Source: Candidatus Aquidulcis sp. (GTDB taxonomy: Bacteria > Chloroflexota > Anaerolineae > Anaerolineales > E44-bin32). Taken from it: 36,024 nucleotides of DNA. Below are positions 28,698 through 35,562 of the stretch, piece by piece (within the stretch, counting starts at the first letter, position 1; each line of letters opens with the position of its first letter). The translations under genes and the position numbers were made by a program. The DNA lies in contig DYJB01000009.1 of NCBI GenBank assembly GCA_020723365.1, positions 1-36,024 of the forward strand. The letters run 5' to 3'. The notes under the pieces are model-generated. The model ran no database searches. It saw only the letters and a program-made list of their open reading frames with translations, and was not told where the DNA came from.

Positions 28698-28768
28698 TGG
28701 GGCGTAGTGCAATGGCAGCACACCGGACTTTGGATCCGTGGATCTAGGTTCGAATCCTGGCGCCCCAG
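28698..28768 (+). tRNA. tRNA-Gln (anticodon TTG)
   Basis: TGGGGCGTAGTGCAATGGCAGCACACCGGACTTTGGATCCGTGGATCTAGGTTCGAATCCTGGCGCCCCAG. Acceptor stem TGGGGCG/CGCCCCA pairs, GGTTCGAATCC T-arm, CT-TTG-GA anticodon loop; CCA not encoded. Confidence 0.93.
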
Positions 28769-28860
28769 CCTGACGAGTCGCTCCCCCACGCTGTGTGCAT
28801 CTCCGCCCTCGCATCCCAGGTCCGTCGCCCCGCCGGGATCGTCCCTGCAAGGAGCAACCC

Positions 28861-30228: not shown

Positions 30229-31510
30229 GCTGGCGCTGGTTCTGCTGGCCCTGCTGGCCTTTGGGCTGGCCCTCGGGCGCAGTGCGCTGGTGAACAGCCA
30301 CGCCGCCCGGCTGCGGGCCCTGCATGAAGGCGGAGAGAGGCGGGCCGGCTGGGCGCTGCGTGTGGCCGACGACGCCACGCGCCTGATCCTGGCCGCCGCA
30401 CTCGGGCAGAACCTCCTGCGCCTGCTGGTGCTGGGGATCGCGCTGGCCGCCTTCGGGGGCAGCCCGCCAGCGACCGGGCAGGACTGGGTGCGCTGGTTCG
30501 GCGTGCTGGTCCTGGCGGGACTGGCGCTGGCGCTGATCGAGACGCTGGGCGACATGGCCGGACACGGGAGCCCCGAGCGCTGGGCGCTGCGGCTGGTGCC
30601 GGTGATGGGGCCCCTGATCGCGGTGCTGGCCCCTGCAGCCGGGCTATTGCGCCGGCTTCCGACGCTGGGCGCGCTGCCGCAGGTGGGCGGGCGGCCCCAG
30701 CTGGTCACCGAAGAGGAGATCAAGACGCTGGTTGATGCCGGCGAGGAGGGCGGGGCGATTGAGGAAGAGGAGAAGGAGATGATCTTCTCCATCTTCCAGC
30801 TCGGCGACACGCTGGCGCGCGAGGTCATGGTGCCGCGCATCGACATCGTCGGCTTCGAGGCCGGGATGCCGCTGTCGGAAGCTGCCCGAACGCTGATCGC
30901 CACCGGACATTCGCGCGCCCCGGTCTATACCGGCACGATCGATAACGTCATCGGGCTGCTCTACGCCAAGGACGTGCTCGCCGCCTGGCAGGCCGGCGCC
31001 CAGGACAAGCGCGTGCGCGAGGTCATGCGGCCGGCCATTTTCGTTCCGGAGGCCAAGAAGGTCGATGACCTGCTGCAGGAAATGCAGGCCAGCCGGGTGC
31101 AGATGGTCCTGGTCGTCGACGAGTACGGTGGGACGGCCGGGCTGGTGACGCTCGAGGACATCGTCGAGGAGATCGTGGGCGAGATCCAGGACGAGTACGA
31201 CCTGGCGGAGGAGATGCCCTACCACGAACTACCGGACGGGAGCTTCCGCTTCAATGGCGGCATCGACCTGGATGACGTCAACGAACTGACCGGGGCGCGG
31301 CTCTCCAAGGAGGCCGGCGAGACCCTCGGCGGGCTGATCTACAGCCTGTCCGGGCGCGTCCCCGCCGCCGGTGACATTCTTGAAACGGGCGGGCTGAGGC
31401 TGGAGGTCGAGCAGGTGACCGGCCGTAGGATCCGCAAGGTGCATGCGACTCGCAGCGAGGCCGGCGCGGGGACGGAGGCGGACGATGATCACGCAAGCGC
31501 AGCGCAGTGA
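30218..31510 (+). CDS. CNNM/hemolysin-C family protein with CBS pair and CorC/HlyC domain
   Basis: MIFSIFQLGDTLAREVMVPRIDIVGFEAGMPLSEAARTLIATGHSRAPVYTGTIDNVIGLLYAKDVL...VLVVDEYGGTAGLVTLEDIVEEIVGEIQDEYD. Overlaps glmU by 11 nt. Confidence 0.93.
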   Translation: MASELALVLLALLAFGLALGRSALVNSHAARLRALHEGGERRAGWALRVADDATRLILAAALGQNLLRLLVLGIALAAFGGSPPATGQDWVRWFGVLVLAGLALALIETLGDMAGHGSPERWALRLVPVMGPLIAVLAPAAGLLRRLPTLGALPQVGGRPQLVTEEEIKTLVDAGEEGGAIEEEEKEMIFSIFQLGDTLAREVMVPRIDIVGFEAGMPLSEAARTLIATGHSRAPVYTGTIDNVIGLLYAKDVLAAWQAGAQDKRVREVMRPAIFVPEAKKVDDLLQEMQASRVQMVLVVDEYGGTAGLVTLEDIVEEIVGEIQDEYDLAEEMPYHELPDGSFRFNGGIDLDDVNELTGARLSKEAGETLGGLIYSLSGRVPAAGDILETGGLRLEVEQVTGRRIRKVHATRSEAGAGTEADDDHASAAQ

Positions 31511-31895
31511 GCTCGTGGCCCGGGCGAGCGAGGCCCGCCAGAACGCCTACGCTCCGTACTCGAACTACCGCGTCGGCGCAGCGCTCCTGGCCGAATCGGG
31601 CGAGATCTACACGGGCGTCAACGTCGAGAACGCTGTCTACCCGACCGGCACCTGCGCCGAGCGCACGGCGATCTTCAAGGCCGTCTCCGAAGGCGAACGG
31701 ACCTTCACGGCCATCGCCGTCGTGACCGAGAACGGCGGCACGCCATGCGGTTCCTGCCGGCAGATGTTGGCCGAGTTCGGGCTCGATACCCTGGTGCTCA
31801 TCGCCGATGCCGGCGGGCGGGTCGTCAGCGAGACGAATGTGCGCGCCTTGCTGCCGCAGGCATTCGGGGCAGCGGATCTCCCGGCCCGGGGCTGA
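31485..31895 (+). CDS. cdd: Cytidine deaminase
   Basis: ARQNAYAPYSNYRVGAALLAESGEIYTGVNVENAVYPTGTCAERTAIFKAVSEG...TPCGSCRQMLAEF. Confidence 0.96.
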   Translation: MITQAQRSELVARASEARQNAYAPYSNYRVGAALLAESGEIYTGVNVENAVYPTGTCAERTAIFKAVSEGERTFTAIAVVTENGGTPCGSCRQMLAEFGLDTLVLIADAGGRVVSETNVRALLPQAFGAADLPARG

Positions 31896-31927: not shown

Positions 31928-31955
31928 CGGCCGGGACCCATCTGGGTCCCGGCCG
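31928..31955. terminator. Bidirectional terminator-like hairpin between convergent cdd and the secreted-protein gene
   Basis: CGGCCGGGACCCA-TC-TGGGTCCCGGCCG, 13-bp perfect arms. Confidence 0.65.
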
Positions 31956-31983: not shown

Positions 31984-34452
31984 CTACGGGTAGTCCTGGT
32001 CCGGCTGCCAGATCAGCGAGGTCTTTCCGCAGCTGCTGCTGACGAAGAAGGTCGCCATCCCCTGCTTGAAGAGCTCTTCCCAGGCGTGCTTGCGGTCTTC
32101 GCTGTAGGGGAAGTTGACGAAGTCATTGTAGGGAGCAAAGACGATCGGGATCTCGAGTGTTTCGCCTGCCGCAAGGGCAGGGACCATGAACGTGCGGTAG
32201 TCGAACAGCCCGTAGGTCGTGTTGGTCATGAGCGGCTTCGATAGCTTCCAGAACATCGGCACCGGCCCCGTGAGACCGGGTCCTTCCACGCGGGCGCTGG
32301 CGCTGACCGTGCCCTTGCCGGTACACACCGGCGTCCCGGAGAATTTCGGGTTGGGTGAGATGCGCAGCGTCAACATCGGCATCTGGTACTCGCCGTCGGG
32401 GTCGGGCTTCACCGGGACGCCATTCGGTACGTAGCTCACGGATTCCGACAGCGCCTTCTGCGCTTCCAGCAACCCCGCCTGCAAGCCTTCCTTGAACTTG
32501 GCCTCGACCGTCTTCTGCCACTGCGCCTTGGCTTCCTCCAGCGCGATTCCGGTGAGCAGGCTCCCGTTGGCGGCCTTCGTCACCTCCTCCGGGATGCCGA
32601 CCTGCATGGCGGCCTGCTGCGCCAGGTAGTCCATGCCTTGGTTGACCAGCTGATCGAAGTTGGGGATGCTGGGGGGAATACCCATCGACGCCAGCGCGCC
32701 GTCGAGGATCGTCCCGAGGCACTGCTTGCCGCACAGCTCGCCCGGCACGAACTTGGCCACCAGGTTGACGACTTCAGCCTTCAGGTCGCTGTAGGCCTGA
32801 CTGATCCAGTTCAGCGCCCCGGTGGCGTAACTCCAAGCCTTCTCCAGCCAGCTCTTCTCCTCAGGCTTGGGCTGGCAGAACTTGTCGCCCACGTTGTATG
32901 TGATCTTCTGATCGAATGGGTAGGTGATGGTCGTCTGCTTGGTTACCAGGTAGCAGCCGGAGTGTCCGTTGTCAGGCGGATTGAAGGTCTTGTAGGAGAT
33001 GATCTCGATCAGGTAGGGCGATTCGATCTTGATCGTGGGCGTCGGCGTCGGGCATCCCGGGGCCGATGGGTCGTTCAAACAGTTGAGGTTGGGAACCTCG
33101 AGGTACCCGCCCCCTCCTGCAGTCCAGTCCATGCGCACGGCGTTGGAGGCCGGGCTGACTTGCGCTTCGCCGACGACCGGCAGGATGCGGAAGTAGAAGC
33201 CGGTGACCGGGAAGAGGTTCCCGCCGGGCGGCAGGAATGTCACCGGGTTGAAAGGCTCCTGGAGGACAGCCTGGGAGCCGATGGAGACGACTGCGCCGGG
33301 AGAGCCGGCGGGCGCCGGCGTCGCCGTGGCGGCGTTGAAGAACGGGATCTGGCTCGGTGCGGTGGTGATGTCTCCCTGGGTGACGCTGCCGGGCGGCAGC
33401 GGAGGGTTGACCGGCGTCAGATCGATGGAGAAGACGCAGTTGGCGCAGGTGACCGGCCACGAGGCGATCAGCCCGTCCGGCGCCAGCGCATCCGCCTCGC
33501 TTCCGGTCGGGAAGGGCAAGGCCGAAGCCTGGAGCACACCCGCCGTTGCGCCGGGGTAGGTAGTCTCCCACTTGAGGACGAACTTGAGGTCGGCGAGCGA
33601 CCCGGACGTGGACACGAGCGTAGCCCATTCGCCGAGATTGATCTCACCCGTCACGGGCGGGGAGCTGATCCGCGTTGAACCCCACAGGTTGGTCGTCCAG
33701 GGAGGCTGGTAGCTGATCGACAGCCCGGAGCCGACCACCCACAGATCGCTTGTCCGGGTCGACGTCGTCTGGCAGTAGCGATCCCACAGGCGGGTGCGGA
33801 CCTCGAACACGGATCCTGGCACGGCCGCGGGCAAGTCGAACAGATAGGCGCCCGGTGCGTCCCCCTGTCGCGCCGCCGTTCGCAGCGCAGGCCCGGTCCG
33901 CATCAGGACGTTGGAACCGAACATGACCTTCTGCCAACGCATCGGAACGAACTCGAGCTCGATAGTTTCCGGCGCCGACCGGCAGCCGGGGATGGTGAGC
34001 GATCCCGGCACCGACGAGGTCACCGGCCGAGGCGCGGAGGGAGCGGGGCGCGTCGGGGAGGGACCGGAGCCGCCGCCCGATGAGCCGCCGTCGAAACGGA
34101 AGCGGGCGGAGGCCGACATGTCGCCATCGGGACAGAAGGCCGTGACCTTGACCGTGCGGTTCTGCCCGGCCGATCCGGTGACATAGAACTCGCCGTCCAG
34201 GCTGCCGTCGCGGCCGATCGATCCCGAGCCGGCGGCGTCACCACCAACCTCGACGCCGCCGCCTGGACACCATCCGTTTCCGCTGAACGATCCGCTGGCC
34301 GCCGGGGGCGGGCCGCTACTGGGACTCAGGCTGAGGGAGGGCCCGTCCGACTGAGCCCGGGCTTCCGGCGCGGGGACCCACGCTGCGGCGAGAACGGCGA
34401 CCAGCAGCAGTGCGTGAACCAGGCGAACGCGGATCTGAAGAAGCATGATCAC
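31984..34452 (-). CDS. Large secreted multi-domain protein of unknown function
   Basis: 822-aa ORF with signal peptide (LVHALLLVAVLAAAWVPAPEARAQ); RBS GGAGGTGTGATC before ATG. Ig-like N-terminal domain, Gly/Ser/Pro linker, FnIII-like segments, amphipathic helical module. Confidence 0.85.
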   Translation of the reverse strand: MIMLLQIRVRLVHALLLVAVLAAAWVPAPEARAQSDGPSLSLSPSSGPPPAASGSFSGNGWCPGGGVEVGGDAAGSGSIGRDGSLDGEFYVTGSAGQNRTVKVTAFCPDGDMSASARFRFDGGSSGGGSGPSPTRPAPSAPRPVTSSVPGSLTIPGCRSAPETIELEFVPMRWQKVMFGSNVLMRTGPALRTAARQGDAPGAYLFDLPAAVPGSVFEVRTRLWDRYCQTTSTRTSDLWVVGSGLSISYQPPWTTNLWGSTRISSPPVTGEINLGEWATLVSTSGSLADLKFVLKWETTYPGATAGVLQASALPFPTGSEADALAPDGLIASWPVTCANCVFSIDLTPVNPPLPPGSVTQGDITTAPSQIPFFNAATATPAPAGSPGAVVSIGSQAVLQEPFNPVTFLPPGGNLFPVTGFYFRILPVVGEAQVSPASNAVRMDWTAGGGGYLEVPNLNCLNDPSAPGCPTPTPTIKIESPYLIEIISYKTFNPPDNGHSGCYLVTKQTTITYPFDQKITYNVGDKFCQPKPEEKSWLEKAWSYATGALNWISQAYSDLKAEVVNLVAKFVPGELCGKQCLGTILDGALASMGIPPSIPNFDQLVNQGMDYLAQQAAMQVGIPEEVTKAANGSLLTGIALEEAKAQWQKTVEAKFKEGLQAGLLEAQKALSESVSYVPNGVPVKPDPDGEYQMPMLTLRISPNPKFSGTPVCTGKGTVSASARVEGPGLTGPVPMFWKLSKPLMTNTTYGLFDYRTFMVPALAAGETLEIPIVFAPYNDFVNFPYSEDRKHAWEELFKQGMATFFVSSSCGKTSLIWQPDQDYP

Positions 34453-34623
34453 ACCTCCCGGCGCATGGACGAGGGTTTCGAATGCGGGCGGATTCGGCGG
34501 AGTTGGGGACAGTAGCGGAGCGCGGGCACCGTGCCGCGCACGGCGAGGCCGCAGGATGGGACGAAGTCAGCGTGCCTGGGGGGCGTCGGCCCCATCCCAT
34601 GGGTCCTTGTGGAGATAATGGGC

Positions 34624-34763: not shown

Positions 34764-34772
34764 TGGTATAAT
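34764..34772 (+). promoter_or_regulatory. Candidate extended -10 (TGG-TATAAT) of recO, 7 nt before the ATG
   Basis: TGGTATAATCCCGCGCATG, with no Shine-Dalgarno. Confidence 0.6.
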
Positions 34773-34779
34773 CCCGCGC

Positions 34780-35562
34780 ATGCCGAGCCGCGAGCGCCTC
34801 TACCGGACGGAAGCGGTCGTCTTGCGCCGGGGGGAATTCGGAGAGGCGGATCGCATCCTCACCGCCTACAGCCCGGAGCACGGCAAGCTGCGACTGGTGG
34901 CCAAAGGCGTGCGCAAAGCGCGCTCGCGCAAAGCCGGGCATCTCGAGCCTTTCACCCGCGTGGAGCTGCAGATCGCCCGCGGCCACGACCTGGACGTCAT
35001 CACCCAGGCGACGGCGCTCGATCTGCACCCGGGATTGCGCCAGGACCTGGAGCGTTTCGGCCACGCTGCCTACGTGGTCGAGCTGATGGATCGCTTCACC
35101 GTACAGGAAGGTGATGCCCGCGGGCTGTACCGGTTGCTGGTCGATACGCTTGAGCGGCTGGATGAGCCGTCCCAACCGGCGGCGGTCGTAGACTACTACC
35201 AGCTTCGCCTGCTCGACCTGCTCGGCTACCGCCCCGAGCTGTTCCGCTGCCTGGGCTGCGGCGCCGAGGTACGGCCTGCCGACCAATTCTTCTCGGCCGC
35301 CGCCGGCGGCGTCCTGTGCCCGGACTGTGGACGGCGTCGTCCGGAGGCGCGCCGCCTGTCCCTGGCCGCCCTCAAGGTGCTGCGACACTACCAGCGCAGC
35401 GCCTTCGCCAGCGCCATGGCGCCGCACGTGCGCTTCGAGGTGCTGGATGAGGCCGGGCTGGTGCTGGAAGCCTATGTGAGCTACCTGCTGGAGCGCCGCC
35501 TGCAGGCGCCCGTGTTCCTGCGCCAGGTCCGCCATCTCGAAGCTCAGGCGGCCGCAAAATGA
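34780..35562 (+). CDS. recO: DNA repair protein RecO
   Basis: [68 protein letters not shown]...[12 protein letters not shown]...GGVLCPDC. Confidence 0.93.

What the first reader, a model, noticed from the sequence alone, without database searches (positions are those of the whole stretch)
31984..34452. 822-aa secreted multi-domain protein with no recognised family
Signal peptide, small Cys-containing Ig-like domain (PSLSLSPSSGPPPAASGSFSGNGWCPGGGVEVGG...TAFCPDG), flexible Gly/Ser/Pro linker, FnIII-like segments (FYFRILPVVGEAQVSPASNAVRMDW), a helical module and a C-terminal beta domain ending ...SSSCGKTSLIWQPDQDYP. There is no anchor or sortase signal, and it is monocistronic between housekeeping genes. 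It could be a surface adhesin, secreted toxin or matrix protein.
Basis: partly seen in the sequence, partly recalled or inferred. Interest (0 to 1): 0.6.

Follow-up and report, generated by a model that had tools for sequence, protein, structure and literature searches.

The report
Secreted surface protein, undescribed core domain
This is a real gene for a large secreted protein that belongs to an undescribed family of cell-surface proteins scattered across anaerobic bacteria and a few archaea; its job is probably structural or adhesive, but that has not been tested.

Summary
The minus-strand ORF at 31984-34452 is a real gene (better start ATG 34446, 820 aa) with a signal peptide, a Cys-Ig-like domain, a linker, Ig/Fn3-like β domains, a helical module and a C-terminal β domain. 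It matches no Pfam, NCBIfam or PDB sequence, and structure search finds only generic Ig/Fn3 beads.

It is not an orphan. The full architecture recurs in Chloroflexota MAGs (31-35% identity). The C-terminal ~340-aa core, which holds a helical module with a G-[IVL]-P-P-[ST]-[LI]-P-N motif, occurs in about 68 loci: Chloroflexota, Bacillota, Caldisericota/Cryosericota, Patescibacteria, Methanomicrobiales and others. In relatives the core carries interchangeable N-terminal anchors (SLH, LysM, lipobox, uncleaved TM, Tat-lipobox). This makes a surface-displayed structural or binding protein the best reading.

The distribution is patchy: 3/27 genomes of the family and about 1% of the class. The gene sits as an extra in a conserved cdd-recO spacer that is about 125 bp long in the same-genus genome.

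A toxin or enzyme role has no positive support, and the ligand is unknown. "Adhesin or matrix" is plausible. "Toxin" is not supported.

The parts
31984..34446 (-). whole gene from the preferred ATG (820 aa plus stop); the GTG at 34452 adds 2 codons
   Evidence: ORF; ribosome-binding site 34454-34459 with 7-nt spacing to ATG; homologues
34454..34459 (-). ribosome-binding site GGGAGG
   Evidence: sequence
34354..34446 (-). signal peptide, residues 1-31 (MLLQIRVRLVHALLLVAVLAAAWVPAPEARA|QS), no lipobox Cys
   Evidence: sequence; cleavable-type signals in L043, L044, L045, L047
34087..34344 (-). N-terminal Ig-like beta-sandwich, residues 35-120, with Cys60/Cys105
   Evidence: AlphaFold pLDDT >90; aligned in L043-L047 with the cysteines largely kept
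34006..34086 (-). Gly/Ser/Pro linker, residues 121-147 (longer Pro/Thr linkers in relatives)
   Evidence: pLDDT 33-44; alignment
33736..34005 (-). beta domain A, residues 148-237
   Evidence: shared with L043-L047
33118..33681 (-). Fn3-like beta domain B, residues 256-443 (LQASALPF...FYFRILP...SNAV), with a disordered insert 354-413 (33208-33387)
   Evidence: duplicated in tandem in most Bacillota relatives; Q306 and R420 nearly invariant
32896..33015 (-). beta segment, residues 478-517 (YLIEIISYKTFNPPDNGHSGCYLVTK...), start of the conserved core
32434..32856 (-). helical module, residues 531-671
   Evidence: no PDB or BFVD fold match to it
32647..32682 (-). signature motif GIPPSIPNFDQL, residues 589-600
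   Evidence: its invariance is partly by construction of the scan pattern
31987..32424 (-). C-terminal beta domain, residues 675-820 (...VPALAAGETLEIPIVF...)
   Evidence: conserved in the family
31929..31954 (.). 11-bp perfect G+C hairpin between the convergent stops of cdd and this gene; likely shared terminator (no U-tract)
   Evidence: z = -4.8; one search finds no canonical terminator
31443..31895 (+). neighbour: cytidine deaminase (cdd)
   Evidence: Pfam PF00383
34780..35562 (+). neighbour: recO, with TATAAT at 34767-34772, 7 nt before the ATG
   Evidence: Pfam RecO_N and RecO_C; promoter and start conserved in the same-genus genome

Best explanation
The protein is exported through Sec by its N-terminal signal and stays on or near the cell surface as an extended string of Ig/Fn3-like beta domains that carries one conserved helical module near the C-terminus. 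Relatives attach the same core to different surface anchors: SLH domains in Bacillota and Caldisericota/Cryosericota, LysM/Big_7, lipobox or uncleaved N-terminal TM in Anaerolineae. The window subfamily lacks these and has a disulfide-type Ig domain plus flexible linker in that position. The N-terminus is therefore probably the retention or ligand-contact module, and the conserved C-terminal core is the functional part, acting by binding (self-assembly in the envelope layer, or contact with polymer or partner cells) and not by catalysis. Shown: gene, export signal, domain layout, shared core, anchor swapping in relatives, patchy distribution. Inferred: surface retention of this member, and the structural/adhesive role.
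For: Full-length homologues with signal peptide and the same order of domains. Core shared by about 68 loci; single-sequence phmmer hits 59 of them at E 1e-8 to 1e-94 with no hit to reversed sequences. Anchors in relatives: SLH in 22 of 57 N-terminal segments, LysM in 6, Big_7 in 7; lipobox in at least 12, Tat plus lipobox in L105. The best fold matches of the whole model are mostly Ig/Fn3 bead proteins, among them S-layer proteins (8cka, SbsC 4uj7), a biofilm-associated protein (7dm0) and ICAM. No enzyme or toxin family. Conserved positions outside the search pattern look mostly structural (Q306, R420, G520, N546, S549, Y552, K556, G617, P619, P756).
Against: The window protein itself has no anchor, so it may be released. 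Foldseek similarity to Ig/Fn3 proteins is generic and says little about function. The helical module resembles nothing known, so an activity cannot be excluded. No ligand-binding motif was found. No proteomic data.
Confidence: 0.6

Rival explanations
1. Secreted toxin or antagonistic effector: the beta-domain string delivers or displays the helical module, which is the active, perhaps membrane-acting, part.
For: A conserved helical module of unknown fold on variable N-termini across phyla; patchy, transfer-like distribution.
Against: No toxin family match. No conserved small immunity-type neighbour: the only recurrent neighbour is a Big_7/SH3 lipoprotein in Anaerolineae. The C-terminal core is the most conserved part, whereas polymorphic toxins usually vary at the C-terminus.
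Confidence: 0.1
2. Extracellular enzyme or accessory protein for polymer degradation, with the Ig/Fn3 domains as spacers or carbohydrate-binding parts.
For: Weak Foldseek matches to a bacterial sialidase with Ig-like linker domain (2ber, 1w8o); one relative (L105) adds a C-terminal beta-helix; Fn3/Ig linkers are common in secreted enzymes (general knowledge).
Against: No catalytic family in any of 61 members; no recurrent polymer-utilisation neighbours; no conserved acidic or His set.
Confidence: 0.15
3. Partner protein of a surface complex: in Anaerolineae the core protein works with the Big_7/SH3 lipoprotein encoded directly downstream, and the window gene is a stand-alone variant.
For: 12 Anaerolineae-type loci have this lipoprotein directly downstream in the same orientation (domains).
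Against: Not present beside the window gene or its closest relatives L043-L047. Whether G000 encodes it elsewhere was not searched directly.
Confidence: 0.15

Closest known systems
Uncharacterised homologues in Chloroflexota MAGs (L043 SJ520, L044 PR.017, L045 CHL9, L047 FeB_14)
   Same: Signal peptide, Cys-Ig domain, Pro-rich linker, beta domains, helical GIPPS[LI]PN module and C-terminal beta domain over the full length; 33-35% identity, about 39% in the last 343 aa
   Different: Longer Pro/Thr linkers; different genomic neighbours
SLH-anchored proteins of Bacillota and Cryosericota with the same core (e.g. Sedimentibacter saalensis L099, Cryosericum hinesii L081)
   Same: Fn3-like domain, helical module and C-terminal beta domain
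   Different: SLH anchor and usually two Fn3-like copies; the window protein has neither
LysM/Big_7 proteins of Anaerolineae (L012, L013, L015)
   Same: Same core, surface-type N-terminus
   Different: Big_7 and (in L012, weakly L013) LysM at the N-terminus and a downstream Big_7/SH3 lipoprotein gene; absent here
Ig/Fn3 bead proteins with solved structures: S-layer SbsC (4uj7), D. radiodurans HPI S-layer (8cka), Biofilm associated protein C region (7dm0)
   Same: Generic Ig/Fn3 beta-sandwich strings
   Different: No sequence relationship, low TM-scores, no counterpart of the helical module

Membership tests
GIPPSLPN-core family defined here (undescribed) | Profile match over beta segment + helical module + C-terminal beta domain | tested here: met
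   A4 profile hits the window at E 2e-76 (the window is one of its 61 rows); independently, phmmer from the window protein alone hits 59 of 68 loci and no reversed sequence
GIPPSLPN-core family defined here (undescribed) | Surface anchor at the N-terminus (SLH, LysM, lipobox or TM) | tested here: not met
   Window protein has only a cleavable-type signal; also true of L043, L044, L045, L047. Not needed for core membership, but retention is then inferred
S-layer protein with SLH anchor | SLH repeats (PF00395) | tested here: not met
   No Pfam match in the window protein
S-layer protein with SLH anchor | Forms the surface lattice, high abundance | not testable with these tools
   Needs proteomics or cryo-EM
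Sortase-anchored adhesin | LPXTG plus C-terminal TM | tested here: not met
   Protein ends ...TSLIWQPDQDYP; no hydrophobic tail
Fibronectin type III / bacterial Ig domain families | Match to Pfam Fn3, Big_x, CARDB or IPT/TIG models | tested here: not met
   None at E<=1 (only DUF7148 at E 0.24, below its cut-off); the fold alone is Ig-like
Polymorphic toxin | Recognisable C-terminal toxin domain and adjacent immunity gene | tested here: not met
   No family match; neighbours are cdd and recO
Phage-borne protein | Homologues in phage or viral contigs | tested here: not met
   No relative in viral contigs or phages; no plasmid match either; no consistent PHROG

The most novel reading that the evidence does not exclude
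The helical GIPPS[LI]PN module with its flanking beta domain is an undescribed, horizontally spread functional domain (perhaps a cell-cell contact or membrane-acting device) that bacteria and some methanogenic archaea of anaerobic communities display on interchangeable surface anchors.
Probability: 0.15. Interest if true: 0.6.

Novelty: new variant of a known kind. Interest (0 to 1): 0.4.

Why it matters
It defines a domain family absent from Pfam, NCBIfam and PDB that is present in named strains (Sedimentibacter saalensis DSM 13558, Cryosericum hinesii SMC3), so its role could be tested outside the uncultured window organism. If it mediates contact or envelope assembly, it may explain part of how anaerobic consortium members, including methanogens, build their surfaces.

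Tried and rejected
Single-sequence genome-contig scan: no relatives; solved by using an alignment. Weak genome-search hits in G185, G130, G335, G288, G091 and G148 (E 5e-4 to 5e-3) were set aside; the four read (G185, G148, G130, G288) are unrelated proteins or antisense frames (bactofilin-like, HypF-like, antisense, FtsX-like). A2 hits limited to profile positions 5-110 reflect a domain of the LysM lineage and were not counted as the window family. Reversed-sequence hits of the small starting profile (rev_L044, 1.4e-10) are probably due to the Pro/Thr linkers. Foldseek of the C-terminal core against PDB and BFVD: nothing meaningful (best PDB hit E 9e-4 with TM 0.12). Phage, plasmid and viral origin: no matches. 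Conserved genomic neighbourhood beyond the Anaerolineae lipoprotein: none. Literature: no relevant paper found. A first synteny run used wrong frames for two neighbour genes and was repeated.

Full report
Observation. The ORF is real and complete. The likely start is ATG 34446, 7 nt after GGGAGG. Codon-position GC (0.60/0.53/0.855) matches its neighbours. The gene is convergent with cdd and divergent from recO; the other neighbours are a CorC/CNNM-type membrane protein, GlmU and GlyQ (GlyQ named from its sequence). An 11-bp perfect hairpin separates it from cdd. No sigma-70 or terminator consensus was found by the scan.

Domain layout. The AlphaFold2 model of the whole protein (63-row alignment) has mean pLDDT 69.7 and pTM 0.46: individual domains are credible, their arrangement is not. 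Elements: signal helix; beta-sandwich 39-118 with Cys60/Cys105; linker; beta domains; a disordered insert at 354-413; beta segment 478-517; helices 533-564, 574-587, 597-616, 620-628 and 634-669; C-terminal beta domain. A second model of residues 478-820 has pLDDT 76 and pTM 0.68.

Family. No Pfam, NCBIfam or PDB sequence match. A first search found three Chloroflexota proteins of 881-1035 aa that share residues ~160-820. An alignment of these (A2) then found 68 loci. All are recovered by an iterated profile. From the window protein alone, phmmer hits 59 of the 68 at E 1e-8 to 1e-94 and none of the reversed sequences. Six loci (L043-L048) align over the full window protein or nearly so, including the N-terminal Cys-Ig domain (L046 is truncated at its start). 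In the tree the window protein forms a 99* clade with L043-L047. No Pfam, NCBIfam or PHROG family is matched by more than one of the 61 core members, and then only weakly; a profile search of PDB gives nothing below E 0.1.

Caveat on the motif. The scan pattern was G[IVL]PP[SET][LI]P[NT][FLY][DE], so the motif's invariance among these loci is by construction. A relative in the same taxonomic family, found without that pattern (G007, L038), has a degenerate form, GAPADIPDLNEL. Conservation at Q306, R420, G520, N546, S549, Y552, K556, G617, P619 and P756 does not depend on the pattern.

Anchors. Of 57 N-terminal segments of relatives, 22 have SLH, 6 LysM and 7 Big_7. At least 12 have a lipobox, one of them (L105) with a Tat motif. 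Others have cleavable-type signals (window, L043, L044, L045, L047) or uncleaved-looking TM helices. The core is thus repeatedly coupled to surface-retention modules. In the window subfamily the corresponding place is taken by the Cys-Ig domain and linker; that this retains the protein is inference.

Context and distribution. In 12 Anaerolineae-type loci the next gene is a Big_7/SH3 lipoprotein; elsewhere there is no recurrent neighbour. The core is rare: 4 of 298 genomes of the class and 3 of 301 of the phylum sample; in the window's family, 3 of 27 (G000, G017, G007). The order glmU-corC-cdd-recO-glyQ is conserved in relatives. In the same-genus genome the cdd-recO spacer is about 125 bp and holds no such gene; in the window it is about 2.9 kb. 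In G014 and G008 the same spacer holds a different reverse-strand gene. So this is an accessory gene at a permissive spot; gain here versus loss in the sister cannot be told from one comparison. The host is Chloroflexota: the window's family includes G017, whose contig matches in length (75,439 bases) the record of an Anaerolineales MAG (L107, isolate Zod_Metabat.534).

Transfer. Bacillota and Chloroflexota members are largely grouped in the tree, while Pseudomonadota, Bacteroidota and archaeal rows are scattered, many on long branches. MAG labels are unreliable: L048 (labelled Phycisphaerales) scores identically to L047. Transfer is likely but not proved.

Fold comparison. The full-length model matches mainly Ig/Fn3 bead proteins, with TM-scores normalised to the query of 0.13 or less. 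The core has no useful PDB or BFVD match.

Verdict. A surface-displayed modular protein with an undescribed core domain. Structural/adhesive binding is the best reading (0.6); an enzyme accessory, a surface-complex partner and a toxin are rivals. The kind of protein is familiar; the core family is not described in the libraries searched. The literature search found nothing, though that library is open-access only.

Noticed in passing
window 34767-34786: recO appears to start at ATG 34780 with a TATAAT only 7 nt upstream (34767-34772), conserved in the same-genus genome, which suggests a leaderless transcript; the GTG at 34531 listed for the ORF is then not the start.
   Followed up: partly
L012:5375-6787, L013:7253-8113, L015:7640-8809(-) and similar loci: A Big_7 lipoprotein, with an SH3 domain in several, lies directly downstream of the LysM-type core protein in 12 Anaerolineae-type loci: a conserved pair of unknown function.
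   Followed up: partly
L035 (G000:C323), L036 (G000:C182): The window's genome also encodes two TM-anchored Big_7/LysM/FnIII-like proteins of about 830 aa that share a domain with the LysM lineage but lack the helical core.
   Followed up: no
L137 4750-7060, L141 5150-7530: The cdd-recO spacer in G014 and G008 holds a reverse-strand gene for a membrane protein with a sulfatase-like C-terminal part, so this spacer tolerates insertions.
   Followed up: no
L048 vs L047: A contig labelled Phycisphaerales carries a protein scoring identically to that of a Dehalococcoidia MAG; the bin label is doubtful.
   Followed up: no
window 28698-28770: tRNA-Gln (TTG) between a response-regulator gene and glmU.
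   Followed up: no
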